DNA of 64,000 nucleotides from Siderastrea siderea. Taxonomy: Eukaryota > Cnidaria > Anthozoa > Scleractinia > Rhizangiidae. Under the pieces are notes generated by a model. It searched no databases. It was not told the origin of the DNA and was given only the letters and a program-made list of their open reading frames with translations. This document shows positions 1 to 60,705 of this stretch, piece by piece (within the stretch, counting starts at the first letter, position 1; every line of letters begins with the position of its first letter). The DNA is taken from contig OZ034978.1 in the NCBI GenBank assembly GCA_964030785.1, forward strand, positions 1,074,001 through 1,138,000, given 5' to 3'. Position numbers and translations under genes: made by a program.

Positions 1-3000
1 AAAATCGAAGTCATCATGAAACAAGTTATTTGAGCTGTTTCCGGCAGCTACTTAAATAAATCCTGTTTTCGAAAGACTCATAATGGAGAGAATTCGCTAT
101 GCGTTGTAGAGAGCTAAAACAAGGAGAATGTACTACAGAGATGGAAATCATTATAAAACACCTGGTAAAGGCTTTTCCCAGCAAGTTTTGACAAAACGAA
201 ATTTTAGTGACTCGTAACGGAGAAAATTCGGTCTGTGTCGCAAAGGGCTCCAAAGTTGTAGAATATGCCACAGACATCGAAGTCCTCATAAAGCAAGTGA
301 TTTTACCTGTTTCCAGGAACTATAGAATAAATCCAGTTTTCGAAAGACTCATAATGCCCAGAATTTGTTATGCCTCGTGGAGAGCTAAATCTAAGAAAAT
401 GTACTGGAGACATGGAAATCATCAAAAAACAGATGGTTTCGTCTTCTGCCAGCAAGTTTTGAGTAAACGAGATTTCAGTGACTCGTTATGGACAAAATTC
501 GGTCCGCGTCGTAAAAGACTAAAACATTCAGAATATGCCCCAGACATCGGGGACACCATAAAAAAAAGTGATTAGAGATGTTTCCGGCAACCATTGAAAA
601 AGTGGAGTTTTCGAAAGACTTATAATGGACAGATTTCGTTCTGCCTCGCAGAGAGGCAAAACCTTGGAGGATGTACTACAGACATGGAAATCATCATTAA
701 ACACTTAGTTTGATCCTTTTCCACCAAGTTTTTACAAAACGAGATTTGCAGTTACATATTATAACCAAAATTCGGTGTATGAGTTAGAGCTTCTACAGTC
801 GCAGAATATCCCACAGACATCGAAGTCACCATGAATCAAGTGATTTCACCTGTCCCCGAGAACTATTGAAAAATCCAGTTCTTGAAAAACTCATAATAGA
901 CAGAATTCGTTATGGGTCGCTGAGAGCTAATACTAAGATAACGTACTACAGACATGGAAATCATCATAAGAAACCTAGTTTGGTCTCTTGCCACCAAGTT
1001 TTGACAAAACGAGCTTTCACTGACTCGTGTTCGACAAACTTTGGTCCGGGTCGTAAAGGGCAAAAGCTTTCCGAATATGCCCCACACATCAAAGTCATCA
1101 TGAATCAAGTAATTTGAGCTGTTTCCGGCAACTATTGAATAAATCCAGTTTTCGAAAGACTAATAATGGACAGAACTCGTTAACCGTCGTAGAGAGATAA
1201 AACTGAGAGAATGTCCTGCAGACATAAAAATCATGATAAAACTCCTGGTTTGCTCAGTTCCCAACAACTTCTGACCAAACGGGAGTTGCAGTGAGTCTTA
1301 GGGACGCATTTCGGTTTGTGTCGTACACTGTTAAAGCCTGCAAAATATGCCACGGATATGGAAGTCATCATGAGCCAAGTGATTTTAGCTCTTTCCGACA
1401 ATTTTTAAATAAATGCAGTTTTCAAAAGACTCATTATGGACAGAAATCGTTATGCGTGGTAGAGAGCTAAGGCTGAGAGATTGTTCTACAGATATGGAAA
1501 TCATCATGAAAAGCCTGGTTTGGTCAGTTCCCATTAGCTTCTGACAAAAGGGGATTTGCAGTGACTAGTTATGGACTAAAGTCAGTCCGTGTCCTTAAGG
1601 GCCAAAGCTATCAGAATATCCCCAGACATTAAAGTCATGATGAAAGGAGTGATTTGAGCTGTTTGCGTCAACTATAGAATAAATCCAGTTTTCGAACGAC
1701 CCATAATGGACAGAATTCGTTATGCGGCGTAAGAAGCTAATACTAAGAGAATGTGCTACAGACACGGAAATCATCATAAAACACTTTCCCAGCAAGTTTT
1801 GACAAAACCAAATTTCAGTAACAAGTTATGGACAAAAGGCAATCTGTGTCGTACATGGCTGAAACTTGCAGAATATGAAACAGACAACAAAGTCATCATC
1901 AAACAGATGATTTAAGCTGTTTGCGGGAACTATTGCAAAATGCACCTTTCGAAAGGCTGATAATGGACAATATTCGTTATGCATCGTAGAGAGCTAAGGC
2001 TGAGAGAATGTCCTATAGACATGGAAAACATCATCAAAAACGCCGTTTGGTCTTTTTCCAGCAACCTTTGAGACAACAAGATTTCAGTGACTCGTTATGG
2101 ACAAAGTTCGGTGTGTATCGTAAAGAGTAAAGCTTGCAAAATATGCGACAGACATTGAAGTTATCATGAAACAAGTGATTTGAGCTGTTTCCGAAAGACT
2201 CATAATAAACAGAATTCGTTGAGCGTCGTAGAGAGCCAAACTAAGGGAATGTTCTAAAGATATGGAAATCATCATAAAAAGCCTGTTTTGGTCAGTTCCC
2301 AACATTTTCTGACTAAAGGAGATTTGCAGTGACTCGTTATTGACTAAATTCGGTCCGTGTCGTAAAGAACCAAAGCTTACAGAATATGCCACAGACATTA
2401 AAGTCATCATGAAAGAAGTCATTTGAGCTTTTTCCGTCAGCTATTGAAAAAAGCCAGTTTTCAAACGACCCATAATGGACAGAATTCGTTATGCGTCGTA
2501 AAGAGCTATTAAATACTAAGAGAATGTACTACAGACATGGAAACTCATCATAAAACACCTGGCAAGCTCTTTTCCCAGCAAGTTTTGACAAAACGAAATT
2601 TGATTAACAAGAGCTCATGACGGAGAGAGAATTCGTTATGGGTCGGAGGGAACTAAAACTAAGAGAAAGAACTATAGATATGGAAGTCATCATAAAACAC
2701 TTGGTTTGGTCTTTTTCCAGCAGGTTTTGAAAAAACGAGATTTGCAGTGACTTGTTACTGACATAATTCGATTTGTGTCGTACAGGGCGAAGCCTCGCAG
2801 AATATGCCACAGACATCGAAGTCATCTGATATGCCTCGTAGAGAGCTAAATCTGAGAGAATGTACTACAGACATGGAAATCATCAGAAAACAGATGGTCT
2901 GGTCTTCTGCCAGCAGGTTTTGGGAAAACAAGATTTCAGTGACTCGTTATGGACAAAATTCGGTCCGTGTTGCAAAGGGCTAAAGCTTTATGAATATGCC

Positions 3001-6000
3001 ACAGACATCCAGGGCATCATGAATCAAGAGAGCTAAAACTGAGAGAATGTCCTACAGACATAAAAATCATGATAAAACTCCTAGTTTCGTCAGTTCCCAA
3101 CAACTTCTTACCAAACGGGATTTGCAGTGAGTCGTTAGGGACGCATTTCGGTTTGTGTCTTACAGTGGCCTTACAGGGTTAAAGCTTTCAGAATATGCCA
3201 CAGACATCGAAGTCATCATGAAAGAAGTGATTGGAGCTGTTTCCGGCAGCTATGAAATACATCCAGTTTTCAAAAGACGCCTTATGCAGAGAATTTCTTT
3301 TGCGTCGTGGAGACCTAAAACTGAGCGAATGTCTTACAGAAATGAAAATCATGATAAAACACCTTGTCTGTTAATTTCCCAACAACGTCTGACAACACGA
3401 GATTTGCAGTGACTCGTTAGGGTTTTAATTTGAATACGCCACTGACATCGAAGGTTTCATGAGACAAGTTACTTGAGCTGTGTCCGGGAACAAATGAATA
3501 ATTCCAGTTTTCGAAAGACTCGTAATGCAGAGAATTCGCCATGCGTCGTAGAGAGCTAACACAAGGAGAATGTACTACAGAGATAGAAATCAATATCAAA
3601 TACCTGGTAAGATCTTTTCCCAGTAAGTTTTGACAGAATGAGATTATAGTTACTCGTTATGGACAAAATACGGTCTGTGGCCGTGTTGCAGAATATGCCA
3701 CAGACATCGAAGTCAGCATGAAGCAAGTGCTTTTAGCCGTTTCCAGGACTATAGAATAAATCCAGTGTTCAAAACACTAATAATGGACAGAACTCGTTAT
3801 GCATCGTAAAGAGCTAAAACTGAGAGAATGTCCTACAAACATCAAAATCATGATAAAACACATGGTTTACTCGATTCCCAACAACTTCTGACAAAACGAG
3901 ATTTCAATTGATCCGTTTAAGGGACGTATTTCCGTTTGTGTCGTACACTCTTAAAGCTTGCAGAATATGCCACGGATATGGAAGTCATCATGAGACAAGT
4001 GATTTGAGCTGTTTCTGGCAACTTTTGAATAAATGCAGTTTTTGAAAGAATCAAAATGGACAGAATTCGTTATGCGTGGTAGAGAGCTAGGCCTGAGAAA
4101 AAGTGCTAGAGACATTTTCTTTTTCCAGCAAGTTTTGACAAAACAAGATTTCAGTGACTCGTTTTGGACAAAATTCGGTCTGTGTCGTAAAGGGCTAAAG
4201 CTTGCAAAATATGCCACAGACAATGAAGTTATCATCAAACAAGTGATTTGAGCTGTTTCTGGGCACTATTGTACAAATGCAATTTTCGAAAGACTCATAA
4301 TAAACAGAATTCGTTGTACGGCGTAGAGAGCTAAACCTAAGAGAATGTACTAAAGATATGGAAATCATCATAAAAAGGCTGGTTTCGTCAGTTCCAAACC
4401 ACTTCTGTCAAAAAGAGATTTGCAGCGACTCGTTATGGACTAAATTCGGTCCGCGTCCTAAACGGCCAAAGCTTTCAGAATATACCACAGACATTAAAGT
4501 CATCATGAAAGAAGTCATTTGAGCTGTTTCCATCAACTACAGAATAAATCCAGTTTTGAAACGACCCATAATGGACAGAATTCGCTATGCGTCGTAAAGA
4601 GCTACTAAATACTAAGAGAATGTACTACAGACATGGAAACTCATCATAAAACACCTGGTAAGGTCTTTTCCCAGCAAGTTTTGACAAAACGAAATTTGAT
4701 TAACAAGTTATGGACGAAAGGCAATGCGTGTCGTACATGGCTGAAACTTGCAGAATATGAAACAGACAACAAAGTCATCATCAAACAGGTGATTTAAGCT
4801 GTTTCCGGGAACTATTGAAAAATGGAGTTTTCGAAAGGCTCATAATGCACAGTAGTCGTTATGCGTCGTAGAGAGCTAGGACTGAGAGAATGTCCTACAG
4901 ACATGAAAATCATGATAAAACAATTGGTTTGGTCAGTTCCATACAACTTCTGACAACACGAGATTTGCAGTGACTCGTTAGTGACGTAATTCGGTTTGCG
5001 TGGTACAGGGTTCAGGCTTGCAGAATATGCCACTGACATCGAAGTCATCATGAAACAAGTGATTTGAGCAGTTCCTGGCAACTTTGAAATAAATCCAGTT
5101 TTTGAAAGGCTCCTAAAGGCCAGAATTGGTTATGCGTGGTAGAGACCTAAAAATGAGAGAATGTCCTACAGACATGGAAATCATGACAAAACACCTGGTT
5201 TGGTCAGATCCCAAGAACAAACAATAAATCCAGTTTTCGAACGACTCATAAATGACCGAATTCGTTATGCGTCGTCGAGAACTAAAACTTAGAGATTGTC
5301 CTACAGACATGAAAATCATGACAAAAGAGCTGGTATGGTCAGTTTCCGATACCTTTTGACAAAACGAGATTTGCAGTCACCTGTTAAGGACTTATTTCCG
5401 CTTCTGTCGAACAGGGTTAAAGGTTGCAGAATTTGCCACACACATGGAAGTCATCATGAAACAAGTGATTTGAGCTGTTTCCAGCAACTTTTGTATAAAT
5501 GCAGTTTTTGTGAGAGTTTTTTCTAAGGCTGAGAGAATGTCCTACAGACATGGAAAACATCATAAAAAAGGCAGTTTGGTCTCGTTATGCATCGTAAAGA
5601 GCAAAAACTGAGGGAATTTCCTACAGACATAAAAATCATGAAAAAACACATGGTTTACTCGATTCCCAACAACTTCTGACAAAACGAGATTTGCGGTGAC
5701 CCGTTAGGGACGTATTTCGGTTTGTGTCATACACTGTTAAACCTTCCACAATATGCCATGGATATGGAAGTCATCATGAGACAAGTGATTTGAACTGTTT
5801 CTGACAGCGTATGAATAAATGGAGTTTTTGAAAGACTCATAATGGACAGAATTCGTTATGCGTGGTAGAGAGCTAAAGCTGACAGAATGTCCTACAGATA
5901 TGGAAAACATAAAAAAGGCGGTTTGCTCTCTTTCCAGCAAGTTTTGACTAAACGAGATTTCAGTGACCCGTTATGGACAAAATTCGGTTTGTGTCATAAG

Positions 6001-8824
6001 TGGTAAGGCTTGTAAAATACGCCACAGACATTGAAGTTATCATGAGACAAGTGATTTGAGCTCTTTTCGGCAACTTTTGAATAAATGCAGTTTTCGAAAG
6101 ACTCATAATGGACAGAATTCGTTATGCGTGGTAGAGAGCTAAAGCTGAGAGAATGTACTAAAGTTCCTGGTCACCATAAAAATCATCATAGAAATCATCA
6201 TAAAAAGCGTGGTTTGGTCAGTTCCCAAAAACGTCCGACAAAAGGAGATTTGTAGTGACTTGTTATGGACTAAATCCGGTCCGTGTCCTAAGGGGCCAAA
6301 GCTTTCAGAATATGCCACTGACATTAAAGTCATTATGAAAGAAGTCATTTGAGCTGTTTCTGTCAGCTCTTGAATAAAGCCAGTTTTCGGAAGACATGAT
6401 GGAGAGAATTCATTCTGCGTCGTGAAGAGCTAAAACTGAGAGAATTTCCTACAGACATGGCAATCAGATAAAACATCTGGTTTAATCTGCTTCCAACAGC
6501 TTCTGACAAAACGAGATCTACAGTGACTCAGTAGGGACGTAATTCGGTTTGTGTCGTACAGGGAGAATGATCTCTAGACATGAATATCATCATAAAACAG
6601 CTGGTAAGGTGTTTTCCCAGATAGGTCTGACGAAAGGACATTTGCAGTGACTCGTTATGGGCTAAATTTGGTCGGTGTCCTTAAGGGCCAAAAGCTTTCC
6701 AAATATGCCACAGACATTAAAGTCATCATGAAAGAAGTGATTTGCGCTATTTCCGTAAACTATGGAGTAAATCCAGTTTTCCAAAGACCCATAATGGACA
6801 GAATTCGTTATGCGTCGTAAAGAGCTAATACTAAGAGAATGTACTACAGTCATGGAAATATTCATAAAACACCTGGTAAGGTCTTTTCCCAGCAAGTTTT
6901 GACAAAACGAAATTTCAGGAACGAGTTATGGACAAAAGGCAATCCGTGTCGTACATGGCTGAAACTTGCAGAATATAAAACAGACAACAAAAGTCATCAT
7001 GAAACATAAGTTTTAAGCTGTTTCCGGGAACTCGTTATGCGTGGTAGAGAGCTAAAACTGAGAGAATGTCCTACAGACACAAAAATCATGATAAAACACA
7101 TGGGCTACTCGATTCCCAAAAACTTCTGAGAAAACGAGATTTGCAGTGACCCGTTAGGGACATATTTCGGTTTGTGTCGTACACTGTTAAAGCTTGCAGA
7201 ATATGCCACGGATATGAAAGTCATCATGAGACAAGTGATTTGACCTGTTTCCGGCAACTTTTGAATAACTGCAGTTTTTCAAAGACTCATAATGGACAGG
7301 TTTCGTTGTGCGTGGTAGAGACCTAAAGCTGAGAGAATGTCCTACAGACATGGAAAACATCATAAAAATGGCGGTTGGTCTTTTACCATGAAGATTTGAC
7401 AAAACGAGATTTCAGTGACTCATTATGGACAAAATTTGGTCTGTGTCATAAAGGCCTAAAGCTTGCAAAATATGCAACAGGCATTGAAGTTATCATGAAA
7501 CAAGTGATTTGAGCTGTTTCCGGGAACTATTGAATAAATGCAATTTTCGAAAGACTCATAATAAACAGAATTTGTTGTACGTCGTAGAGAGCTAAAACTA
7601 AGAGAATGTACTAAAGATATGGAAATCATCAGAAAAGGCCTGGTTTGGTCAGTTCCCAACAACTTGTGACAAAAGGAGATTTGCAGTGACTCGTTATGGA
7701 CTAGATTCGCTCCGTGTCCTAAAATACCAAGGCTTTCAGAATATGCTACAGACATTAAAGTCATCATGAAAAAAGAAATTTGAGGTTTTTCCGTCAGCTA
7801 TTGAATAAAGCCAGTTTTCGAAAGACATGATGGAGAGAATTCGTTATGATTCGTGGAGAGCTAAAACTGAGAGAATGTCCTACAGACATGACAATCAGGA
7901 TAAATCACCTCGTTTGGTCAGTTTCCAACAACTTCTGACAAAACGAGATTTGCAGGTCTCGGTAGGGACGTAATTCGGTTTGTGTCGTACACGGCTAAAG
8001 GTTGCAGAATATGCCACAGACATCGAAGTCATCATGAAACAAGTGATTTGAGCTGTTTTCGGGAACTATTTCTAAAATGCAGTTTAGGAATGACTCATAA
8101 TGGACAGCATTCGTTATGTGTCGTAGAGAACTAAGACTAAGAGAATGTACTCCAGACATATAGATCATCATAAAACACCTGGTTTGGTCTTTTGCCAGCA
8201 AGTTTTGACAAAACGAGATTTGTAGTGACTGGTTAGGGACGTAATTCGATTTGTGTCGTACAGGGCTAAACCTCGCAGAATATGCCACAGACATCGAAGT
8301 CATCATGAAGCAAGTGATTTTAGCTGTTTTTCAGGAACTATAGAATAAATCCAGTTTTCGAAAGACTCATAATGTACAGAATTTATGCCTCGTAGAGAGC
8401 TAGATCTAAGAGAATGTTCTACAGACATGGAAAACATCAAAAAACAGATGGTTTGGTCTTCTTCCTGCAGGTTTTGGGAAAACGAGATTTCAGTGACTCG
8501 TTATGGACAAAATTCGGTGCCTGTCGTAAAGGGCTAAAGTTCTCAGAATATACCACAGGCATCGAGGGCATCATGAATCAAGTTATTTGAGCTGTTGCCG
8601 GCAACTATTGAATAAATCCAGTTTTGGAAAGACTCAATATACAGAATTCGTTATGTTTCTTTGAAAGCTAAGAGTGAGAGAATGTCCTACAGACTTTAAA
8701 ATCACGATAAAACTCCTGGTTTGATCAGTTCCCAACAACGTCTGACAAAACGGGATTTGTAGTGACTCGTTATGGACGTATTTCGGGTTGTGTCGTACAG
8801 GGCTAAGCCTTGCAGAATATGCCA
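1..8824. repeat. Satellite array, left block (about 270-bp monomer)
   Basis: About 33 head-to-tail monomers of roughly 270 bp, all in one orientation. Landmarks recurring in each monomer are GAATTCGTTATGCG, AGAGAGCTAA, GACAAAACGAGATTT, GCAGAATATGCCACAGACAT and CAAGTGATTTGAGCTG. Monomers differ by roughly 10-25 percent, and several subtypes recur in a fixed order (see findings). Short open frames on both strands are incidental: they repeat with the monomer and have no protein-like features. The block stops inside a monomer at the Polinton B target site and resumes at 50684 in phase. Confidence 0.95.
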
Positions 8825-8830
8825 CAGACA
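8825..8830. repeat. Target site duplication of Polinton B, left copy
   Basis: CAGACA, identical to 50678-50683. In uninterrupted monomers the same place reads GCCACAGACATCGAAG, so the two flanks rejoin exactly with one copy of the 6 bp. Six-bp duplications are typical of Polinton integrases. Confidence 0.9.
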
Positions 8831-9022
8831 ATGTCGGCTCCCTGGAAGATCCTGGGCTCGTTTTGATGTTGAAGGATTTGATTGGTGGAGGAGGGTCAAA
8901 AAAGCGGCGAATTTGGATTTTTCTGGCTGGTGATTGGTGGAGAGGGAAGGGATCAAAAGTCCAATTTGGTATCACGCGGGTGTTCACGTGCTGCTACCAA
9001 AAAAGGTAAAAACGGAAATGAC
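8831..9022 (+). repeat. Polinton B left TIR, outer part
   Basis: Inverted match to about 50488-50677, high identity, for example TTTGATGTTGAAGGATTTGA, TGGTGATTGGTGGAGA and TTCACGTGCTGCTACCAAAA. The repeat continues at 33073, on the far side of the LINE. Compared with the right TIR, about 7 bp are missing from the tip. Confidence 0.92.
9008..9022. repeat. LINE target site duplication, left copy
   Basis: AAAAACGGAAATGAC, repeated exactly at 33058-33072. The right TIR of Polinton B serves as the empty site: it reads GGTAAAACCGGAAATGAAAT without interruption. A 15-bp duplication is typical of target-primed reverse transcription. Confidence 0.93.
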
Positions 9023-9165
9023 TGGGGGTTTTAAGATGGCGGTCAGACGTGTAGACTCGAAGTCTGCTTGTATCGCTCTAACTGACGCCTCTCCGGCACC
9101 CAAATATCCTGAGAAATGTGGTAGACCAGCTTTTTAAAGTAATAATCTTTATTTGTCCAGTGTAA
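9023..9165 (+). promoter_or_regulatory. LINE 5' leader, probable internal promoter
   Basis: 143 bp between the 5' target duplication and the ORF1 start codon. It includes an AAGATGGCGG stretch that resembles a YY1-type core, which is common in L1-class 5' leaders. Promoter function is inferred from position and resemblance only. Confidence 0.4.
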
Positions 9166-9823
9166 ATGTCCTTACGAAAAAAGAACAAACGCGGAGATCG
9201 CGGGTCGATTAACGAAGACAACAGACGCTCCAAAAAGTCCAACATGGCGTCCAACTCTAAAGAAGTGCTCGAAGATGACTGCAACACGTTAGACGAAGAC
9301 CAAGCAGAACCAAGCCTTCTTGAAATTAAAGAGATGTTAATTGACATGCAAATTTCTATTGCTTCAGTCATTGCCGATAATCAAGCGATCAGAAAAGAAA
9401 TTGACGATCTCAAAAGCTCGGTGACCCTTAACGGAGAAGAGTTAAAAAATTAAAAGCCTCTCAAGAAGACGAAAGATGAGAATAAAGCCTTAAAGATCTC
9501 CTTAGCGGCGTTGAATACCCGGGCTTACAGCAACAGAGAAGGAGCTGCAGAATCAAAGCGCAGAATGCGAGTAATTGTGGGAAAACCTCGACCACTTAGA
9601 GCAGTATTTGCGTAAAAATTCTCTAGACATTCATGGCGTTCCGCAAGATGGGTACACATCCACAGAACATGTAGTGATTAAAGTGGCTGAAGCCCTTAAT
9701 ATTACCGTGGAACCCGAGGAGATTGAAATATCACATAAAATCAATCAAGGCAGAAGCATCTTAGTAAAGTTCTGCAGCCACAAGACGAAAGCCAAAATTT
9801 ACAAAGAACGCACAAAGCTGAGA
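9166..9823 (+). pseudogene. LINE ORF1, 5' part (coiled coil and RRM-like), broken
   Basis: This is the nucleic-acid-binding chaperone of the LINE. From the ATG at 9166 a basic, charged N-terminus leads into a predicted coiled-coil stretch (about residues 45-95). An in-frame TAA lies at 9451. A frame change near 9570 leads into a segment containing ENLDHLEQYLRKNSL and HKINQGRSILVKF, the pattern of Transposase_22 or FP25K-like ORF1 proteins. The frame is then cut after codons CTG AGA by Polinton A. The remaining C-terminal domain lies at 28466-28696, in the same frame once the insert is ignored. I have not assembled the protein. Confidence 0.82.
9818..9823. repeat. Target site duplication of Polinton A, left copy
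   Basis: CTGAGA, repeated exactly at 28466-28471. Both copies fall on a codon boundary (Leu-Arg) of LINE ORF1. Confidence 0.95.
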
Positions 9824-9929
9824 AGTACTATAGTGGGCCCAAATAGAGAAGTTTCCCACGTTAATTTGCATACACACCCCCTAGATTGGTTTGTGATTGG
9901 TCGAGAGGTTGTCATGGAAACCAACCGCG
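9824..9929 (+). repeat. Polinton A left TIR
   Basis: About 106 bp inverted match to 28360-28465 with scattered mismatches. Shared blocks include TTTGCATACACACCCCCTAG, ATTGGTTTGTGATTGGTCG and TTGTCATGGAAACCAACCGCG. Confidence 0.93.
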
Positions 9930-9964
9930 GACCGATCGCAGGCGCAGGGGAACCACGTGACCGA

Positions 9965-10265
9965 AAGCAGAAGTGACGTCACCGGAAGTCACAGGACCGG
10001 AACCGGAAGTGACATTACCGGAACCGGAAGTCACCTGGTTTGGAAGGGAAAACCGCGGATCGGGTGGGAAAACTGCGGGCTCAGGGGCACTTGAAGTCAC
10101 GTGGTTTGGAAGGGAAACTGCTGACAGGGTGGGAAAAAGGATGGCGGGCTCAGAGCAAGAACAAGAGAGGACAGGTCGTGAGGCTACCATGACGTGGGTG
10201 GGAAACCGCGGACCACATCGCATGCGTAGATCAGACAAAACAACACCGGAAGTGCCATGGAACAT
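9965..10265. promoter_or_regulatory. Polinton A left subterminal region with CRE and ETS-like sites
   Basis: Contains a perfect ATF/CREB palindrome TGACGTCA at 9974-9981 and repeated CCGGAAGT (ETS-core) motifs between about 9982 and 10040, with related GGAAGTCAC and TTTGGAAGGGAAA repeats up to 10140. Polinton B TIRs carry the same two motif types. The role is inferred. Adenovirus ITRs also carry host factor sites beside the origin. Confidence 0.5.
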
Positions 10266-10341
10266 GCTTTATTCATTCATGTTGAATAACAAGTAGAAAA
10301 AAACGAGTCCAAAGTCCAAACAGGACACCGCACTGGGTCCT
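10266..10341 (-). terminator. Polyadenylation region of the leftward early genes
   Basis: On the minus strand an AATAAA hexamer lies at about 10268-10273 (TTTATT on the plus strand), roughly 70 bp downstream of the RING gene stop codon. It would serve the three leftward genes at 10342-11173. Confidence 0.55.
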
Positions 10342-10749
10342 TTACAAGAAGCTCAAACAGGTTTTCATGCGTTGAATGACTTGGCTTTTGGTGTGACCCA
10401 GAAAGTAGAGTGTTTTGCGGTTGGCATCATACGGATCTCGGAGTTCTCCCCAGAATCCTTCCAGACCCTCGTCGTTGTTTTCATAACAAATGACATACCA
10501 CAAAGGATTCTCTTTCCAAACGTCCTTGACTTGCTCCACAAACTCAGGGTCTTCTTTCCATTGTTGAGGATGAATGACTTGAAGGACGGAAAGAGAAACG
10601 ACTTGTTTGCAGCTAGGACATATGAGGGTCTGACCTTGCTGTCTGCATTGGTTGGCACAGGCGGCATGACAAGGTTGACCACAACACCTCAACGTGGCAT
10701 GATTGGTGACAGGTGTTAAACAGATCACACACGGGAGGGATTGAGGCAT
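10342..10749 (-). CDS. RING-finger-like protein, candidate E3 ligase
   Basis: An intact 135-residue protein. The N-terminal half has a cysteine/histidine array: CVIC at about residues 7-10, then CCGQPCH, then a CxxxC pair, then CPSC at about residues 44-47. This is the arrangement of a RING-type zinc finger. The C-terminal half is charged and tryptophan/tyrosine-rich and not recognised. Its ATG overlaps the stop of the upstream gene (TGATG), so it is probably translated from a shared leftward message. In viruses, RING proteins usually redirect host ubiquitination; here that is inference. Polinton B has no counterpart in its left arm. Confidence 0.7.
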   Translation of the reverse strand: MPQSLPCVICLTPVTNHATLRCCGQPCHAACANQCRQQGQTLICPSCKQVVSLSVLQVIHPQQWKEDPEFVEQVKDVWKENPLWYVICYENNDEGLEGFWGELRDPYDANRKTLYFLGHTKSQVIQRMKTCLSFL

Positions 10750-10967
10750 CAGGCCAAAGGATCAAAGAGAGGATTCGTCAAGAGATGAAATTCGGTGTTG
10801 GTGATGATGCCTTCCAGGCGGAGTCGACACAATTCTTGGTAAGTGAGTTGGTAACGTAAGGGTTGGATCAGTTCTAGGACTTGTTTTCGGATGTCTCCTA
10901 AACGTTGTAGGATTTCCACGGCTTCAGGACTGATCTTGTCGGCTTCAGGACTTATCTTGTCGGCCAT
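10749..10967 (-). CDS. Small helical protein, paralogue 1
   Basis: A 72-residue protein from ATG 10967; the open frame extends further upstream but only with a GTG. It begins with a duplicated seven-residue DKISPEA unit, followed by a helical region with LQRLGDIRKQ and YQELCRLRLEGIITNTEF. It aligns with the neighbouring gene at 10976-11173 over the SPEA...RL...L...ELxRLxxE...NELxLLT pattern, so the pair arose by tandem duplication. Function is unknown. Confidence 0.6.
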   Translation of the reverse strand: MADKISPEADKISPEAVEILQRLGDIRKQVLELIQPLRYQLTYQELCRLRLEGIITNTEFHLLTNPLFDPLA

Positions 10968-10975
10968 ACACGGTG

Positions 10976-11173
10976 TTACCACTGGTAGAAGTTTTTTAAG
11001 GTTAATAAACACAATTCGTTGCGACTGAGGACTTTTTCACTGTGAAGGCGAAGCAATTCGAAATAAGAAGCTTTGAAGCGGATCTCCTCCAAGTCTTTTT
11101 CGAGTTGACCCAACAAGGTTCGTAGACGATCAATCACTTGTTGGGCTTCTGGACTGAGGTCTGGATCCCCCAT
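10976..11173 (-). CDS. Small helical protein, paralogue 2
   Basis: A 65-residue protein beginning MGDPDLSPEA. The ATG at 11173 is chosen because a TATA box at 11206-11216 would place transcription start near 11180, which excludes the in-frame ATG at 11191. It is predicted all-helical and strongly charged. It is paralogous to the next gene downstream and is the first gene of the leftward early cluster. Function is unknown. Confidence 0.6.
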   Translation of the reverse strand: MGDPDLSPEAQQVIDRLRTLLGQLEKDLEEIRFKASYFELLRLHSEKVLSRNELCLLTLKNFYQW

Positions 11174-11205
11174 AGGTTGAAAGTGAAACATGGAATGGGA
11201 CGGTG

Positions 11206-11400
11206 TTTTTTTATAGAGAAACAAAGGGTCACGTGGGAGGGGTAACGAACCAATGAGAGGGAGGTCCCATGGTGCCTAGGGAGGGGTGGGAAGGCGTGGG
11301 GGACCCCCATCCCCCCTCCCTAGTTGGGCCCCATGATGCTTTGCGGGGATCAGGGTGTATATAGGTCGGGCGAGGCCCCAGGACGTCACTCCTAGCTTTG
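11206..11400. promoter_or_regulatory. Bidirectional early promoter module, left copy
   Basis: On the minus strand there is a TATA box (CTATAAAAAAA, 11206-11216) and an E-box CACGTG (11230-11235), then a G/C tract (about 11281-11335) with GGGGGG-A-GGGGG-TCCCCC character and CCCATGATGC beyond it. On the plus strand TATATA at 11358-11363 would serve the gene at 11442. Read in reverse, the interval 11206-11340 matches 25683-25795 closely. Confidence 0.75.
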
Positions 11401-11441
11401 AGTTCGTGCTTGGCTGACTTTTGTCTGTTGAGGAGAAAAAA

Positions 11442-12051
11442 ATGGTTAAAACGAGAAGGCCCTTGCGCTCGCTAGCCAGTGACAGCAATGTAAACGGAGA
11501 AGAGGCTTTGAGGAGAGTTGGGCCGGAGAGAACACCCGTACAACGCCATACCATGGGAATGTACGCAAGATGTGAGGAAGCGTGGAGGCCCCTCACCCGA
11601 CAGCGCGTGGCCGCGTTTCTTCGGCTGTTTGTTCTTTGCTTTGTCGAACTTGAAAATGATCTCCGTCTCCAGACTGTGACTTACAGGATTCTGAAGAAGA
11701 CCATGAGGAAAAAAATTCTTCCCTGGATCCACAACCGGCTGGTGTATACCACGGAGGAGAGGTACTGGCCCATCACCCTGCAGCAATTTCAGGAACTTGA
11801 CCAGTACTTGGCCGACCACATACCCATGGTACACAGAGACGATTCGGTATTTTTTTAAACAAGTGGTGGATCAAAGGGAGGACTGGAGGAGAATTGAGAA
11901 ACTGGAGAGGGAGGCCATGGAGGCCTACGACCGATGTATGGTTCGTTTGAACAGTTGGACATTTTTTTTTATGGTTGACATTTTTGGTTGCTGTGAGTCA
12001 AGAGACACTATTTACGATTACCGTGCAAAACCAGTGTTGTCAGTTTTTTAA
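11442..12051 (+). pseudogene. Helical early protein, frameshifted (B counterpart at 34032)
   Basis: From ATG 11442 a basic N-terminus is followed by VNGEEALRR and a helical body ending WPITLQQFQELDQYL. The frame changes near 11845-11858, after which the homologous C-terminal helix continues (EAYDRCMVRLNSW). Comparison with 34032-34538 in Polinton B shows it is one gene. The segment PWIHNRL...ERYWPITLQQF is loosely reminiscent of the second conserved helix of Bcl-2-type proteins. I regard that only as a hypothesis, since no clear BH1 motif is visible. The gene diverges from the leftward early cluster across the promoter module. An AATAAA lies near 12168. Confidence 0.55.
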
Positions 12052-12081
12052 AATGTTTTAATTAAAAAGAGTTGATGTCTT

Positions 12082-12117
12082 TTACAAATGGTTGTCCGTG
12101 TCCATCTCTTGCCACGT
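12082..12117 (-). pseudogene. Remnant of the 100-residue gene seen in Polinton B
   Basis: The last 11 codons and stop of a leftward gene whose complete copy is at 34655-34957. The shared C-terminal pattern is TWQEMDT in A and AWQDMDT in B. The rest has been replaced by A-rich repeats. Confidence 0.45.
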
Positions 12118-12129
12118 GGGTGGGGCGCT

Positions 12130-12305
12130 CCTATTTACAATGGAAAACTAAGAATTGCAATAAAGCTATGTACAGATTGAAAAATAAAACTAAAAATTGA
12201 AAAGAAAGCCATGTACAAGTCCAAAAGTAAAACTAAAAAAAATTGGAAAAGCTATGTACAATTGAAAAAAACTAAAAATTGAAAAATGCTATGTCCAAAA
12301 GGGCT
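12130..12305. repeat. Degenerate A-rich tandem repeats
   Basis: About four imperfect copies of a 35-45 bp unit around GCTATGTACA...AATTGAAAA...AAAACTAAAAATTG. They fill the gap between convergent genes, with no coding capacity. A related TAGCTATGT motif occurs in the TIR of Polinton B. Confidence 0.6.
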
Positions 12306-13166: not shown

Positions 13167-13169
13167 CTA

Positions 13170-13363
13170 CTTTGAATGAAGACCAGGGAACGAGGGGCCG
13201 TCTTAAATAGGGAACTCTGACCAGTGGGAACACGAGAGGAGCTTATAGGGTCATGACAAGCTGACCAATGAGAACACGAGAGGACCAACTATGGTCATAA
13301 AAAGGTGACCAATCCCATGAAGGGGTCCAGGGGCGGTAGGGGGTGAAAACAACCTTTAGCAGG
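13170..13363. promoter_or_regulatory. Bidirectional promoter between SLOG-like and GRF genes
   Basis: About 195 bp between divergent start codons, with repeated TGACCAATGAGAACACGAGAGG units carrying CCAAT boxes and a TATA-like CATAAAAAGG near 13292. Polinton B has the same arrangement, with more copies, at 35765-36050. Confidence 0.6.
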
Positions 13364-14170: not shown

Positions 14171-14282
14171 CAGAGTATGAGACACACTTGTTGCGAGACA
14201 TTCAAGATCTCAAGAACCATCAAGAAATGATGGTAGCACCGGCTCCACTGCGCCCCAAGTACAGTGACCCTGTAAAGAACTG

Positions 14283-14331
14283 GCAGAAAAGCCTAGAGAC
14301 GGTCGCTTATGACCGTCTTGGTCTCTTTTAA
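14283..14331 (+). other. Strong hairpin at the 3' end of the GRF gene
   Basis: AGACGGTC, a 6-nt loop GCTTAT, then GACCGTCT form a perfect 8-bp stem just before the downstream-frame stop codon. It overlaps the reading frame, so it may be a coincidental or a 3'-end RNA structure. Confidence 0.35.
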
Positions 14332-14379
14332 CAACATGTATAAAGGAGTACGAATAAAATTTTTTTTATTAGTGTGACC

Positions 14380-15817: not shown

Positions 15818-15830
15818 TTGGTTGGCAGGC

Positions 15831-16868: not shown

Positions 16869-16884
16869 AGAAAAAGAAGACAAG

Positions 16885-17927: not shown

Positions 17928-17965
17928 GAAGGGGGTCTTGGAAAGGGAGTTTCCATCACAACAAG

Positions 17966-42879: not shown

Positions 42880-42905
42880 AAAAACAGACAAAGACTTTGG
42901 GTGGT

Positions 42906-45482: not shown

Positions 45483-45489
45483 GATGAGA

Positions 45490-48700: not shown

Positions 48701-49930
48701 TCATCCTCGGTTGATCTCACATCCGGGTCACACGGAGATTAACATCTACTTTGGTGTCATCAAATGTCGAGTCCTGTGCCCGCGTGAACTGTACCATCCC
48801 GTACTGCCTTACCGCCATGCCGGCAAACTTACCTTTCCTCTCTGCAAGAAGAAATGGCCAAACCTCCCTTGCCGAGATCTTACCAGTGCACACACTCCGA
48901 TGACGAGCGCGCCCTGACCGGTACGTGGTGCACCCCCGAATTGCAAAAAACCGTGGAGTTGGGCTAGCGAATCCAGTACATCTATGAGGTGTGGCATTTT
49001 GACGAAACCTGTCAAGGTCTCTTCCGAGACTACGTCAACACTTGGTTGAAAATCAAACAAGAAGCCAGCGGTTGGCCGAAATGGGTGGGTGATGACGAAA
49101 CCAAACGCCAGCAGTACATCGGCGAGTACTACGAGCACGAAGGTATCCGCCTAGAGTACGACAAAATCGAACACAATCCGCGTCTGCGTGCTCTAGCCAA
49201 AATGATGCTCAATTCCATGTGGGGCAAGTTTGGGCAACGTCTCAACAAGACCCAAGTCAAGGAATTTGACGACCCCCAAGCCTTTCACCGTTTCCTGGAT
49301 ACCGACACCACAGATGTACGTCACGTGTCCGTTGTCAACGACCACCTCGTGGAAGTCCACTATCAACATCAACAAGAAGACATCCCCGTGTCTCCCAATC
49401 TCAACGTTTTCGCGGCCTCTTTCACGACCTGTTGGGCACGTGATCGTCTCAATGAAGCCATCTAACTCTTGGGTGAACGCGTGCTGTACTACGACACCGA
49501 CTCGGTCCTTTACCTGGAGGAACCGGGTCAACCCAACCCTCCCTTGAGAGATTACCTCGGAGGGTCTACCAGCGAATTGGAGGCTGACGATTACATCGAA
49601 GAATTCGTGTCGGGCAGTCCCAAGAATTATGGCTACAAAACCAAGAAGGGCAAAGCCGAATGCAAAGTGCAAGGCTTCCGGCTCAACAGCAAAAGAAAAA
49701 CCCAATTGAATTATGACGTCATGCGTCAGAACGAGGTGGACGAAATCCAAAAGCCTCAAAAGGAACCGCGCCAAACTTAAGTCGTCAAAACGTATCAGAT
49801 CGTCAAAACCTACGATCTCTTTCCCGACTACAAGCGTTACCAACTGGTGTACGACAGGAGAGTCATCGATCCCAGTACCTTTCAAACCTACCCTTACGGA
49901 TACCAAGCAATATGCCAAGATATTACCTAA
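45743..49930 (+). pseudogene. Protein-primed-type DNA polymerase B, near full length, multiply frameshifted
   Basis: About 1,390 codons. After the ATG at 45743 the frame changes near 45860. A long block to about 47745 carries the N-terminal domain, a Cys-rich zinc region (CANCLKPY, CHDCRRDFFGDTC, CPICLKLE) and exonuclease motifs I (FFDIEA, about 47399) and II (NFQGYDGYF). Frame changes near 47745, 48565 and 48860, with stops near 48965, 49462 and 49778, follow. Exo III is YCKSDVRLL, polymerase A is DYTSLYPWVNK, B is MLNSMWGKFGQ and C is YYDTDSVLY; a KKGKAECKVQGF block follows. All catalytic motifs are present but not in one frame. Confidence 0.92.
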
Positions 49931-50211
49931 TTCGTCTAGCCCATACGCCTCAAGATCAATTGACCGAACTAGAAAAATGTGAACTCAATTTGATGAAAAC
50001 AAACATTTACGAAGAAACCATTCAGCAAGTCCACAAATTATTTCAAGAATGCTTTCAAGACGTCAAAGAAGACGTGGAAGATTTCATCTTAGCCTAAAAA
50101 CACAGAGACATTCCAGCCATTCGTCAAGCCTACCAAAAAGTACCCAAATTCAATCTCATCTGTGACCATTGTGGCTTATTGGACGTAGAACGAGACTTAT
50201 GGAAAAACTGA
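49912..50211 (+). pseudogene. Small CxxC protein after PolB, one nonsense mutation
   Basis: From ATG 49912 (MPRYYLIRLAHTPQDQLTE), overlapping the end of PolB by 19 bp. A helical acidic region runs to a TAA at 50095. The same frame continues (IPAIRQAYQKVPKFNLICDHCGLLDV) to TGA 50209, with a CxxC pair. It is adjacent to the right TIR and not seen in Polinton A. Function unknown. Confidence 0.5.
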
Positions 50212-50213
50212 TC

Positions 50214-50677
50214 AGTATGGGACGCCGCTGACCGCTCAGACCCAAGCTCCACGCTGCCACCCGGTACATAGCTATTTGGCCTTTGAACTCTTTTTTATGG
50301 GACGCCACTGACCACTCAGGTCCAGGCAAACGCTCCCTCTTATAAACTAAATATGGGTTGATTAAAAAAAATTGATTTTTTTCCTGACAAGTGGCTTAAT
50401 GCTTTGATATTTTCACTTCCGGTTCCGGTATGACGTCATTTCCGTTGTCATGGTGATCACTTCCGCTCCTGGTATGATTTCATTTCCGGTTTTACCTTTT
50501 TTGGTAGCAGCACGTGAACACACGCGTGATACCAAATTGGACTTTTGACCCCTTCCATCTCCACCAATCACCAGCCACAAAAATCCAACATGGCCGACTT
50601 TTTGACCCTCCTCCACCAGTCAAATCCTTCAACATCAAAACGAGGCCAGGAACTCCTAACGAGCCGACATTACTACT
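50214..50677 (-). repeat. Polinton B right TIR, uninterrupted
   Basis: 464 bp, inverted partner of 8831-9022 plus 33073-33335. It contains CRE TGACGTCA (50431-50438), ETS-like CACTTCC/ATTTCCGG repeats, CACGTG (about 50511) and the subterminal unit with TAGCTATTTGG. It ends ...GACATTACTACT and preserves the empty LINE site. Confidence 0.92.
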
Positions 50678-50683
50678 CAGACA
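50678..50683. repeat. Target site duplication of Polinton B, right copy
   Basis: CAGACA, identical to 8825-8830. Confidence 0.9.
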
Positions 50684-53600
50684 TCGAAGTTATCAGGAAG
50701 CAAGTGATTGGAGCTGTATCCGGCAGCTATTAAATAAATCCTGTTTTTGAAAGACTCGTAATGGACAGAATTCGTTATGCGTCATACAGAGCTAAAACTA
50801 AGAGAATGCAGTACAGACATGGAAATCATTATAAAACACCAGGTTTGGTCTTTTCCCAGCAAGGTTTGACAAAACGAGATTTCAGTGACTCCTTAAGGAC
50901 AAAATTAGGTCTGTGTCGTAAAGGGCTAAGGCTTGCAGAATATGCCAGAGACACCGAAGTCATCATGAAAAGTGATTAGAGATGTTTCCGACAACCATTG
51001 AAAAAATGGAGTTTTCGAAGGACTCATAATGGACAGATTTCGTTATGCCTCGTAGAGAGATAAACCTAGGAGAATGTACTGCAGACATGGAAATCATCAT
51101 TAAACATCTAGTTTGGTCTTTTTCCACCAAGTTTTGACAAACAAGATTTTCAGCTACTTGTTATCAACAAAATTTGGTCTATGAGTTAGAGCTTTTAAAC
51201 TTGCAGAATATGCCACAGACATCGAAATCACCATGAATCAAGTGATTTGAGCTGTTCCCCAGAACTATTGAAAAATCCAGTTCTTGAAAAACTCATAATA
51301 GACAGAATTCGTTATGGGTCGCTGAGAGCTAATACTAAGATAAGGTACTACAGACAGGGAAATCATCATAAAACACCTTGTTTGGTCCTTTGCCAGCAAG
51401 TTTTGACAAAACGAGGTTTCAGTGTCTCGTTATCGACAAAATTTGGTCCGTGCCTTAAAGGGCTAAAGCTTTTAGAATACCCCACAGACATCACAGTCAT
51501 CATGAATCAAGTGATTTGAGGTGTTTCCGGCAACTATTGAATAAATACAGTTTTCGAAAGACTCATAATGGCCAGAATTCGTTATGCGTCGTAGAGAGCT
51601 AAAACGAGATAATGTCCTACAGGCATAAAAATCATGATAAAACTCCTGGTTTCGTCAGTTCCCAACGGGATTTACAGTGAGTCGGTAGGGACGCATTTCG
51701 GTTTGTGTCTTACAGGGTTAAAGCTTTCAGAATATGCCACAGACATCGAAGTCATCATGAAAAAAGTGATTGGAGCTGTTTCCGGAAGTTATTAAATACA
51801 TCCAGTTTTCAAAAGACTCCTTATCCAGAGAATTAATTTGCGTCGTGGAGAGCTAAGACCGAGCAAATGTCGTACAGAAATCGAAATCATGATAAAACAC
51901 CTCGTCTGGTCAGTCCCCAACAACTTCTGACAAAACGAGATTTCCAGTGACTCGCTGGGGACGTAATTTGAATACGCCACTGACATCGAAGGTTTCATGA
52001 AATAAGCGATTTGAGCTGTGTTCGGGAACAATTGAATAATTCCAGTTTTCGAAAGCTGATAATGGAGAGAATTTGCCATGCATCGTAGAAAGCTAAAACA
52101 AGGAGAATGTACTACAGAGATGGAAATCATCATAAAATACCTGGTAAGGTCTTTTCCCAGCAAGTTTTGACAAAATGAGATTTTAGTGACTCGTTATGGA
52201 CAAAATACGGTCTGTGTCGTAAAGGGCTAAAGTTGCAGAATATGCCACAGACATCGAAGTCAGCATGAAGCAAGTGATTTTAGCTGTTTCCAGGAACTAT
52301 AGAATAAATCCAGTTTTCAAAAGACTAATAATGGACAGAACTCGTTATGCATCGTAAAGAGCTAAGACTGACAGAATGTCCTACAAACATCAAAATCATG
52401 ATAAAACACATGGTTTACTCGATTCCCAATAACCCGTTAAGGACGTATTTCGGTTTGTGTCGTACACCGTTAAGGCTTGCAGAATATGCCACGGATATGG
52501 AAATCATCATGAGACAAGTGATTTGAGCTGTTTCCGGTAACGTTTGAATAAATGCAGTTTTTTAAAGACTCATAATGGACAGAATTCGTTATGCGTGGTA
52601 GAAAGCTAAAGCTGAGAGAATGTCCTACAGACATGGAAAACATCATAAAAAAGGCGGTTTTGTCTTTTTCCAGCAAGATTTGACAAAACGAGATTTAAGT
52701 GACTCGTTATGGACAAAATTCGGTCTGCGTCGTAAAGGGCTAAAGCTGGCAAAATATGCCACAGACATTGCAGTTATCATGAAACAAGCGATTTGAGCTG
52801 TTTCCGGGAACTATTGAATAAATGCAATTTTCGAAAGACTCAATAAACAGAATTCTTTGTGCGTCGTAGAGAGCTGAAACTAAGAGAATGTACTAAAGAT
52901 ATGGAAATCATCATAAAAAGCCTGGTTTGGTCAGTTCCCAACAACTTCTGACAAAAGTAGATTTGCAGTGACTCGTTATGGACTAAATTCGGAAGGGTCA
53001 AAGCTTTAAGAATATGCCACAGACATTGAAGTCATCATGAAAGAAGTCCTTTGAGCTGTTTCCCTCAGCTATTGAATAAAGGCAGTTTTCGAACGACTCA
53101 CGATGGAGAGAATTTGTTATACGTCGTGGAGAGCTGAAACTGAGAGAATGTCCTACAGACATGACAATCAGGATAAAAAACCTGGTTTGGTCAGTTTCCA
53201 ACAACTTCTGACAAAACGAGATCTGCAGTGACTCGGTAGGGAGGTATTTCGGTTTGTGCCGTACAGGGTTAAAGGTTAAAGAATATGCCACAGACATCGA
53301 AGTCATCATGAAACAAGTGATTTGAGCTGTTTCCGGAAACTATTTCTAAAATGCAGTTTACGAATGACTCATAATAGACAGAATTCCTTTGGGGCCGTAG
53401 GGAGCTAAAACTAAGAGAGTTGTACTACAGACATGGAAATCATCATAAAACAGCTGGTAAGGTCTTTTCCCAGGGAGTTCTGAAAAAAGGAGATTTGCAG
53501 TGACTCGTTATGGACTAAATTCCGTCTGTGTCCTAAAGGGGCAAAGCTTTCAGAATATGCCATAGAAGAGTGAGAATACTGAGTACTCAGAACACTGAGA

Positions 53601-54663
53601 GAATGTACTACACGGATGGAAATCATCATAAAACACCTGGTAAGGTCTTTTCCCAGCAAGTTTTGACAAAACGAAATTTCAGTAACAAGTTGTGGACAAA
53701 AGGCAATGCATGTCGCACATGGCTGAAACTTGCAGAATATGAAATAGACATCGAAGTCATCATGAAACAGGTGATTTAAGCTGTTTCCGGGAACTGTTGA
53801 AAAATGCAGTTTTCGAAAGGCTCATAATGGACAGTATTTGTTATGCGTCGTAGAGAGCTAAAACTGAGAGAATATCTTACAGACATGAAAATCATGATAA
53901 AACAATTGGTTTGTTCAGTTCCATACAACTTCTGACAAAACGAGATTTGCAGTGACTCGTTAGTGACGTAATTCGGTTTGTGTGGTACAGGGTTCAGGCT
54001 TGCAGAATATGCCACTGACATCGAGGTCATCATGAAACAAGTGATTTGAGGAGTTTCCGGCATCTTTTAAATAAATCCAGTTTTCGAAAGACTCACAAAG
54101 GGCAGAATTGGTTATGCGTCGTAGAGAGCTAAAACTGAGAGAATGTCCTACAGACATGAACATCATGATAAAACACCTGGTTTGGTCAGATGAAAACAAC
54201 AATAAATCCAGTCTTCGAACGAATCATAAATGACCGAATTCGTTATGCGTCGTATAGAACTAAGACTTACAGAATGTCCTACAGACATGAAAATCTTGAC
54301 AAAACAGCTGGCTTGCTCAGTTTCCAATACCTTCCGACAAAACGAGATTTGTAGTCACTTGTTAGGGACATATTTCCGTTTGTGTCGAACAGGGTTAAAG
54401 CTTGCAGAATATGCCACAGACATCAAAGTCATCGTGAAAGAAGTCGTTTGAGCTTTTACCGGCAGCTATTTAATAAATCCAGTTTTCGAGACTCATAATG
54501 GAGAGAACTCGTTATCCGTCGTTGAGAGCTAAAACTGAGAGAATGTCCTACAGATATCAAAATCATGATAAGACACCTGGTTTGGTCGGTTCCCAACAAC
54601 TTCTCACCAATGGACATTTGCAGTGACTCGTTAGGGACGTAATTCGATTTGTGTCGTACAGAA
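50684..54663. repeat. Satellite array, middle block
   Basis: About 15 monomers of the same satellite and orientation as 1-8824, resuming mid-monomer (TCGAAGTTATCAGGAAGC). Some monomers are nearly identical to ones in the left block; for example 51250-51350 matches 850-950. It ends mid-monomer at a TTAA. Confidence 0.95.
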
Positions 54664-54667
54664 TTAA
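54664..54667. repeat. TTAA target duplication, left copy
   Basis: TTAA at the left border of the long-TIR element. In intact monomers the target reads GTACAGGGTTAAAGCTTGCAG. Confidence 0.85.
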
Positions 54668-59469: not shown

Positions 59470-59473
59470 TTAA
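59470..59473. repeat. TTAA target duplication, right copy
   Basis: TTAA followed by satellite sequence GGCTTGCAGAATACGCC. Confidence 0.85.
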
Positions 59474-60705
59474 GGCTTGCAGAATACGCCATTGACATCG
59501 AAGTCATCATGAAGCGTTATTTGAGCTGTTTCTGGCAGCTACTGAAATAAATCCTGTTTTCGAAAGACTCATAATGGAGAGAATTCGCTATGCGTCGTAG
59601 AGAGCTAAAACAAGGAGAATGTACTACAGAGATGGAAATCATCATAAAATACCTGGTAAGGTCTTTTCCTTGCAGGTTTTGACAAAATGAGATTCTAGTG
59701 ACTCGTTATGGACAAAATGCGGTCTGTGTCGTAAAGGGCTAAAGTTGCAGAATATTCCACAGACATCGAAGTCATCATAAAGCAAGTGATTTTTAGGAAC
59801 TATAGAATAAATTTTTTCAGAATAAAAACTATAGAATAAATTTTTTCAGAATAGATTTTTTCAGGAACTATAGAATAAATCCAGTTTTCGAGAGACTCAT
59901 AATAGACGGAACTCGTTATGCATCGTGAAGAGCTAAAACTGAGAGAATGTCCTAAAGACATAAAAATCATGAAAAAACACCTGGTTTACTCGATTCCCAA
60001 CAACTTCTGAGAAAACGAGATTTGCAGTGACCCGTTAGGGACGTATTTCGGTTTGTGTCGTACACTGTTAAAGCTTGCAGAATATGCCACGGATATGGAA
60101 GTCATCATGAGACAAGTGATTTGAGCTCTTTCCAGCAACTTTTGAATAAATGGAGTTTTTGAAAGACTCGTAATGGACAGAATTTGTTATGCGTGGTAGA
60201 AAGCTAAAGCTGAGAGAATGTCCTACAGACATGAAAAACATCATTAAAAAGGCGGTTTGGTCTTTTTCGAGCAAGTTTTGACAAAACGATATTTCAGTGA
60301 CTCGTTATGGATAAAATTCGGTCTGTGTCGTAAAGGGTTAAAGCTTGCAAAATATGCCACAGACATTGAAGTTATCATGAAACAAGTGATTTGAGCTGTT
60401 TGTGGGAACTATTGAATAATGCAGTTTTCGAAAGACTCGTAAGAAACAGAATTCCTTGTGCGTCGTAGAGAGCTAAAACTAAGAGAATGTACTAACGTTA
60501 TGGAAATCATCATAAAAAGCCTGTTTTGGTCAGTTCCCAACAACTTCTGACAAAAGGAGATTTGCAGTGACTCGTTATGGACTAAATTCGCTCCGTGTCC
60601 TAAAGGGCCAAGGCTTTCAGAATATGCCACAGACATTAAAGTCATCATGTAAGAAGTCATTTGAGCTGTTTCCGTCAGCTATTGAATAAAGCCAGTTGTC
60701 GAGAG
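59474..60705. repeat. Satellite array, right block
   Basis: About 4.5 monomers in the same orientation. A small local triplication of AACTATAGAATAAATTTTTT lies at 59796-59880. The array ends at GCCAGTTGTCG, where the 147-bp repeat starts. Confidence 0.93.

What the first reader, a model, noticed from the sequence alone, without database searches (positions are those of the whole stretch)
1..60705. Four-level nest: satellite, Polinton B, LINE, Polinton A, with exact junctions at every level
Each insertion is defined to the base or nearly so by target duplications (CAGACA; 15-bp A-rich; CTGAGA) and by sequence that rejoins correctly when the insert is ignored. This gives an absolute order of events: satellite, then B, then LINE, then A. 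A large DNA virus-like element inside a retrotransposon inside the terminal repeat of its own relative is rare and gives a clock for Polinton activity in one lineage.
Basis: seen in the sequence. Interest (0 to 1): 0.88.

Follow-up and report, generated by a model that had tools for sequence, protein, structure and literature searches.

The report
Nested Polintons in a satellite array
A satellite array was interrupted by a virus-like DNA element (Polinton), then by a LINE retrotransposon in that element's end repeat, then by a second, distantly related Polinton inside the LINE; the nest looks real and neatly readable, but it is ordinary transposon piling and gives an order of events, not a clock.

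Summary
The nest is confirmed. Rejoining 80-bp flanks matches the expected host sequence best exactly at the proposed junction for B/satellite (first of 281 offsets) and LINE/B-TIR (first of 241). The LINE's ORF1 stays open in one frame across A. Target duplications are CAGACA, AAAAACGGAAATGAC and CTGAGA.

Both large elements are Polintons by AGT-type ends, 6-bp duplications, integrase, polymerase B and capsid genes, much of it broken.

(1) Nesting gives order, not a clock: TIR divergence is the same in A and B (8/110 vs 17/192, p=0.83), CpG decay is symmetrical, and decay counts lean the right way without significance. (2) A and B are distinct families (median dS 0.88, dN/dS 0.09-0.29 in the coding frame). 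(3) Both are defective, in different genes. (4) A further insertion was missed: a TTAA-flanked 4.8-kb foldback element at 54668-59469. (5) 'Rare' is weakened: a retrotransposon-virophage-retrotransposon nest is published (PMC8547959), and these families are high copy.

Best lead: A's integrase keeps a chromodomain with conserved aromatic residues, which would predict targeting of silenced repeats; untested here.

The parts
1..8830 (.). Left satellite block, ~270-bp unit made of two ~135-bp halves; last 6 bases CAGACA are B's target duplication
8831..9022 (+). Polinton B, outer part of its left TIR (about 7 terminal bases lost); 9008-9022 is the left copy of the LINE's target duplication
9023..9823 (+). 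L1-type LINE, 5' part with the first part of ORF1; 9818-9823 CTGAGA is A's target duplication
9824..28465 (+). Polinton A, 18,642 bp; TIRs 9824-9933 and 28356-28465 (93%)
14684..15817 (+). A: integrase, uninterrupted 377 aa, rve domain plus C-terminal chromodomain (residues about 322-361)
15852..17921 (+). A: two tandem paralogous genes (41% aa identity), no match in B
18756..20125 (+). A: major capsid protein gene, one stop and one frame change
20128..20670 (+). A: homologue of B's adenain-like protease ORF, one stop relative to B
20808..21493 (+). A: P-loop ATPase gene (GPSGCGKT seen in the translation; Pfam P-loop hits below cut-off); packaging role inferred
25940..27536 (+). A: polymerase B remnant; middle of the gene missing at 27219-27222 relative to B 47157/49070
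28466..33057 (+). L1-type LINE, 3' part: rest of ORF1, endonuclease, reverse transcriptase, zf-RVT; ORF2 spread over several frames
33058..50677 (+). Polinton B, remainder (33058-33072 is the right copy of the LINE's target duplication); right TIR about 50217-50677
36903..37480 (+). B: integrase fragments, 2 stops, 2 frame changes, C-terminal part with the chromodomain missing
38172..39564 (+). B: major capsid protein gene, one frame change near the end; predicted double jelly-roll class
39521..40114 (+). B: adenain-like protease ORF (Peptidase_C5 E 0.0009, below cut-off)
45852..49465 (+). B: polymerase B region: a 699-aa ORF without a Pfam hit, then three overlapping or adjoining pieces with DNA_pol_B_2 hits (47654-48571 weak, 48456-48917, 48968-49465)
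50678..54667 (.). Right satellite block; first 6 bases CAGACA, last 4 bases TTAA
54668..59469 (.).
59470..60705 (.). Satellite resumes in register, ends near 60705

Best explanation
A satellite array received, in separate events, a Polinton (B) by integrase strand transfer with a 6-bp duplication, then an L1-type LINE by target-primed reverse transcription into A-rich DNA of B's left TIR with a 15-bp duplication, then a second Polinton of a different family (A) by integrase into the LINE's ORF1. A TTAA-specific foldback element entered the same satellite independently. All of them then decayed. Shown: layers, junctions, duplications, gene content, relative nesting. Inferred: the insertion chemistry (from the signatures), that each arrived at this locus separately rather than as a passenger, and that tolerance of insertion in silent repeats, helped perhaps by the integrase chromodomain, is why they accumulated here.
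For: Exact-junction maxima against expected host sequence; right TIR of B as empty site; ORF1 frame continuity across A; AGTAGT at the right ends of A and B with 6-bp duplications, as in the (AGT)2 ends and 6-bp duplications given for vertebrate Mavericks in PMC8097293 (passages); integrase, PolB and capsid genes, with weak protease and ATPase hits; L1-type RT. Decay counts lean the right way: B 5 vs A 2 disablements in integrase plus capsid genes (p=0.25), off-consensus residues B 23 vs A 14 over 561 codons (p=0.19).
Against: B's left end lacks about 7 terminal bases. No raw reads or related-species alleles were available; the genome search was unreachable in seven tries. The decay tests are not significant and CpG decay is flat. 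The innermost layer, A, is itself missing the middle of PolB.
Confidence: 0.88

Rival explanations
1. Passenger model: the LINE (perhaps with A) was already inside B when B integrated in the satellite, or A was already inside the LINE copy when that was retrotransposed.
For: The final structure would be the same. PMC12220804 suggests that polinton-like viruses may shuttle nested elements (passages). TIR divergence does not separate the two Polintons in time.
Against: A 24-kb LINE+A RNA reverse-transcribed with a clean 15-bp duplication is implausible on general grounds, and a 41.8-kb B with a split left TIR would have to replicate and integrate. Not tested directly.
Confidence: 0.07
2. Chromodomain targeting (compatible with the best explanation, a rival only to chance): Polinton integrases read methylated histone H3 and send Polintons into already silenced repeats, so satellites and dead elements are preferred sites.
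For: A's integrase ends in a chromodomain (CBX7 match E 2e-6 with the 72-residue C-terminal piece; 4e-5 with the whole protein; Pfam Chromo E 1.9e-4, below cut-off). In an alignment of it with 20 chosen of the 120 listed homologues, W341 and W344 are invariant and F324 nearly so; that these are the methyl-lysine cage positions is recalled. Adintovirus integrases are described with a C-terminal chromodomain (PMC11071296, passage). Both Polintons here sit in repeats.
Against: Only two insertions, and in a repeat-rich genome both could be chance. B's integrase has lost that region, so its own targeting cannot be read. No chromatin data.
Confidence: 0.3
3. Assembly join: one of the layers is a misassembly between repeats.
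For: The layers are repeats, where misjoins are common; reads could not be checked.
Against: Misjoins would not be expected to give matching target duplications and in-register or in-frame continuation at four places.
Confidence: 0.04

Closest known systems
Polinton/Maverick (including adintovirus-type) elements of animals
   Same: AGT-type ends, TIRs, 6-bp duplications, rve integrase with chromodomain, PolB, capsid protein of double jelly-roll class; weak protease and ATPase hits. Polintons are on record from the cnidarian Nematostella (PMC4028283, passages).
   Different: Both copies are broken; A carries a tRNA-like gene and a tandem gene pair not found in B.
Endogenous virophages (EMALEs) with Ngaro retrotransposons in Cafeteria burkhardae, PMC8547959 (passages)
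   Same: Retrotransposons inside virus-like elements, 4 of 20 analysable sites in TIRs; one EMALE holds two Ngaro1 and itself lies inside an Ngaro4.
   Different: Protist, tyrosine-recombinase retrotransposons, not a Polinton inside a LINE inside another Polinton.
Polinton-like viruses of cryptophytes with nested retrotransposons, PMC12220804 (passages)
   Same: Retrotransposons split viral elements in genes or spacers.
   Different: No second viral element inside the retrotransposon is described in the passages seen.
L1 superfamily LINEs
   Same: RT aligns over 512 residues to human LINE-1 ORF2p (E 3e-62) against R2 at 2e-22; endonuclease and zf-RVT hits.
   Different: No clear poly-A tail: only about three As stand before the right duplication copy. 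Of three ORF1 pieces scanned, one gave a weak Pfam hit below cut-off, to Baculo_FP, and two none.

Membership tests
Polinton/Maverick | Terminal inverted repeats with AGT-type ends | tested here: met
   A: 110 bp, 93%, ends AGTACT/AGTAGT; B: about 460 bp, right end AGTAGT, left end lacks about 7 bases
Polinton/Maverick | 6-bp target duplication | tested here: met
   CTGAGA for A, CAGACA for B
Polinton/Maverick | rve integrase | tested here: met
   A intact (rve E 1.2e-11); B only fragments of the same protein
[quoted passage not shown]
   B: DNA_pol_B_2 in pieces, best E 9e-11; A: only a C-terminal piece, E 1.6e-7. Protein priming itself not testable
Polinton/Maverick | double jelly-roll major capsid protein | tested here: met
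   Model of B's ORF, mean pLDDT 59, matches capsid proteins of an iridovirus (best, E 4e-9), PBCV-1, Mavirus and Sputnik, and in BFVD a bracovirus protein (E 2e-15). TM-scores of the listed matches are low (about 0.2-0.5), so fold class only; a sequence search of the PDB with 22 sequences found nothing at E up to 1
Polinton/Maverick | adenain-like protease and packaging ATPase | tested here: inconclusive
   Peptidase_C5 E 0.0009 and P-loop hits from E 0.0012, below curated cut-offs
L1 superfamily LINE | L1-like reverse transcriptase with AP endonuclease | tested here: met
L1 superfamily LINE | Target duplication of variable length from target-primed insertion | tested here: met
   15-bp identical copies
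piggyBac-type element (for 54668-59469) | TTAA target duplication | tested here: met
   TTAA on both sides, rejoins satellite exactly
piggyBac-type element (for 54668-59469) | Transposase or terminal similarity to a known family | not tested
   No stop-to-stop ORF of 150 aa or more lies wholly inside; one of 151 aa (54456-54911, minus strand) crosses the left border. Ends not compared with a repeat library, so it is not filed as piggyBac

The most novel reading that the evidence does not exclude
Polintons of this lineage steer themselves into silenced repeat DNA through a working chromodomain on their integrase, so nests such as this one are the expected product of targeting ('landfill' insertion) rather than chance, and satellite and dead elements serve as a safe harbour where Polintons accumulate. 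(This claims more than the targeting rival, hence slightly lower odds.)
Probability: 0.25. Interest if true: 0.6.

Novelty: new member of a known kind. Interest (0 to 1): 0.33.

Why it matters
It is a clean, self-controlled stratigraphy in which one Polinton's right TIR shows the LINE insertion and a LINE reading frame shows the second Polinton. It indicates that two Polinton families with deep divergence (median dS 0.88 in the coding-frame rows) both integrated in one host lineage, and it supplies a specific test of whether chromodomain integrases send Polintons to heterochromatin. By itself it is one locus and gives relative order only.

Tried and rejected
Clock from TIRs: rejected, A 8/110 and B outer 17/192 do not differ (p=0.83) and B's TIR is uneven, 17/192 vs 41/269 without gaps (p=0.046). 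Dating by the LINE duplication: its two copies are identical and both differ from B's right arm at two of 15 bases; I first took those two differences to predate the LINE, but they may as well be later changes in the right arm, so they date nothing. Clock from CpG decay between A and B: 8,533 aligned sites, 79 vs 67 with control 77 vs 63, no signal. Clock from disablements: A 2, B 5 in integrase plus capsid genes, p=0.25; other genes not counted for want of reference proteins. A transversion skew between A and B (C or G in A against A or T in B 404, reverse 127, all aligned sites; 30:2 at synonymous sites of 561 codons) looked like a decay signature but is not seen in the residue changes that could be polarised (B 4 vs 4, A 2 vs 1; 37 polarised, 67 unclear dropped), so I read it as codon-usage divergence. 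dN/dS (recounted): of 56 printed rows 27 give 0.09-0.29, 26 give 0.38 or more and 3 no value; I took the 27 as the coding frame. Many of the others are alternative frames of the same DNA, but some (such as A 12477-12706 and 13595-13913) may be faster-evolving or wrongly framed stretches. One further row was off the diagonal and dropped.

Searches for relatives in viral contigs: four scans (integrase, capsid protein, two alignments), no relative confirmed. PHROGs on four proteins and a PDB sequence search with the capsid profile: nothing. First structure model (22 sequences) too poor to use, pLDDT 49. Whole-genome search of the window's own assembly did not complete, so copy numbers, other insertion sites and empty alleles could not be examined.

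Full report
What is there. The window is a ~270-bp satellite (two ~135-bp halves) from 1 to about 60705, broken by large inserts. Its host is probably an anthozoan: among the 120 hits listed for each of three proteins, the only names that give an organism are from the stony coral Oculina patagonica (five LINE hits, one capsid hit; 45-61% identity).

Level 1, Polinton B (8831-50677; 17,797 bp of its own). The right end is AGTAGTAATGTCGGC read inwards; the left end lacks about 7 terminal bases and reads CAGACA|ATGTCGGC. CAGACA is duplicated, and a flank join without B restores the satellite: the exact join scores 206, first of 281 offsets.

Level 2, LINE (9023-9823 and 28466-33057; 5,387 bp after one copy of A's duplication is set aside). 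It is of the L1 superfamily by reverse transcriptase (LINE-1 ORF2p E 3e-62 vs R2 2e-22), with endonuclease and zf-RVT hits. It sits in B's left TIR, and B's right TIR shows the uninterrupted sequence. The exact join scores first of 241 offsets. The 15-bp duplication copies are identical.

Level 3, Polinton A (9824-28465; 18,642 bp), in the LINE's ORF1, with CTGAGA duplicated. ORF1 is open for 83 codons before and 76 codons after A in one frame.

Missed layer. At 54668-59469 an element with 1.34-kb inverted arms (91.5%) plus 249-bp inner arms, without an ORF of 150 aa or more wholly inside, lies between two TTAA copies; joining the satellite at TTAA scores first of 181 offsets. It cannot be ordered against B.

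Gene content. A has an uninterrupted integrase and a capsid gene with one stop and one frame change, homologues of B's protease and ATPase stretches, a stretch matching B's PLA2-like region (Phospholip_A2_4 E 7e-4 in B, below cut-off; A/B 85% aa), and a PolB that lacks its middle. B has a capsid gene with one frame change and an integrase with two stops, two frame changes and no C-terminal part, a protease ORF, and PolB in several frame pieces. About 2.8 kb of A, including the integrase end and the tandem gene pair, has no counterpart in B. So neither copy looks able to serve itself now; whether A's deletion came before or after its insertion is unknown.

Capsid identification. A model of B's ORF with 53 sequences (mean pLDDT 59) matches double jelly-roll capsid proteins in the PDB (best E 4e-9) and in BFVD, where the best hit is a protein of a Cotesia bracovirus (E 2e-15); transfer of a Maverick to a wasp bracovirus is on record (title seen in the reference list of PMC4028283). 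TM-scores are low.

Relationship of A and B. Their aligned blocks keep the same order, with 20% mismatches over 8,533 aligned bases. In 27 of 56 rows, which I take as the coding frame, dN/dS is 0.09-0.29 with dS 0.32-1.76, median 0.88: two lineages that diverged largely while functional, not a recent pair. Their TIRs do not align with each other (score 2).

Is it a clock? No. TIR divergence, CpG decay and disablement counts do not separate A from B significantly. B's TIR divergence is uneven along its length (p=0.046), which sits badly with arms identical at insertion that then drifted evenly. What the nest gives is order.

Could inner layers be passengers? The structure alone allows it. I give it 7% because a LINE carrying A would have to be transcribed and reverse-transcribed as about 24 kb, and B would have to move with a split TIR. 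Empty alleles would settle it.

Mechanism. Integrase strand transfer for A and B, target-primed reverse transcription for the LINE, a TTAA-specific transposase for the foldback; these are inferred from the signatures and from general knowledge of the families. Why here: repeats tolerate insertion, and the families are abundant (90%-identity clusters with 1,118 and 905 capsid proteins, 766 and 691 integrases, 178 proteins for the closest LINE cluster), so nests are expected. A's chromodomain offers a directed alternative: its match to CBX7 (E 2e-6) lies in residues 322-361, and in an alignment with 20 of the 120 listed homologues W341 and W344 are invariant and F324 nearly so; that these correspond to the methyl-lysine cage is recalled. 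Chromodomain-directed integration of retrotransposons into heterochromatin is known (Gao et al. 2008, title seen in reference lists; paper not held).

Literature. Nested retrotransposons in virophages and polinton-like viruses are published (PMC8547959 passages; PMC12220804 passages), including a virophage inside one retrotransposon and holding two others. Searches for Polinton with 'nested insertion', with 'nested' + 'satellite DNA' + 'target site duplication', and a five-term search with nested phrases showed no title or abstract start on a Polinton-in-LINE-in-Polinton case; of the papers listed there I opened only PMC12220804, and the library lacks most subscription papers.

Verdict. Observation confirmed; interpretation right on layers and relative order, not borne out on the clock and overstated on rarity; one layer missed. 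New member of a known kind.

Noticed in passing
window 20727-20804: tRNA-like gene in Polinton A (Rfam tRNA 42.9 bits) between protease and ATPase, with good A and B boxes but an odd anticodon arm (ARAGORN finds it only with an intron allowed, as Ser or Leu), followed by eight Ts at 20817; not seen at the same place in B, and the only Rfam hit in the window.
   Followed up: partly
window 54668-59469: 4.8-kb foldback element with TTAA duplications and long imperfect inverted arms, inserted in the same satellite.
   Followed up: yes
window 15852-17921: Two tandem paralogous genes in Polinton A, 41% identical, no Pfam or NCBIfam hit for the two main ORFs, no match in B.
   Followed up: partly
A 9824-28465 versus B 33073-50677: Strong one-way transversion skew, C/G in A against A/T in B (404:127), while transitions are nearly even (384:350); 30:2 at synonymous sites. 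Cause unknown.
   Followed up: partly
window 60730-61486: A different tandem array, 147-bp unit, starts about 25 bp after the satellite ends.
   Followed up: no
window 59798-59864: Small tandem expansion (29/15-bp unit) inside a satellite unit.
   Followed up: no
window 63719-63866: Short tandem array with a 55-bp unit in the right flank.
   Followed up: no
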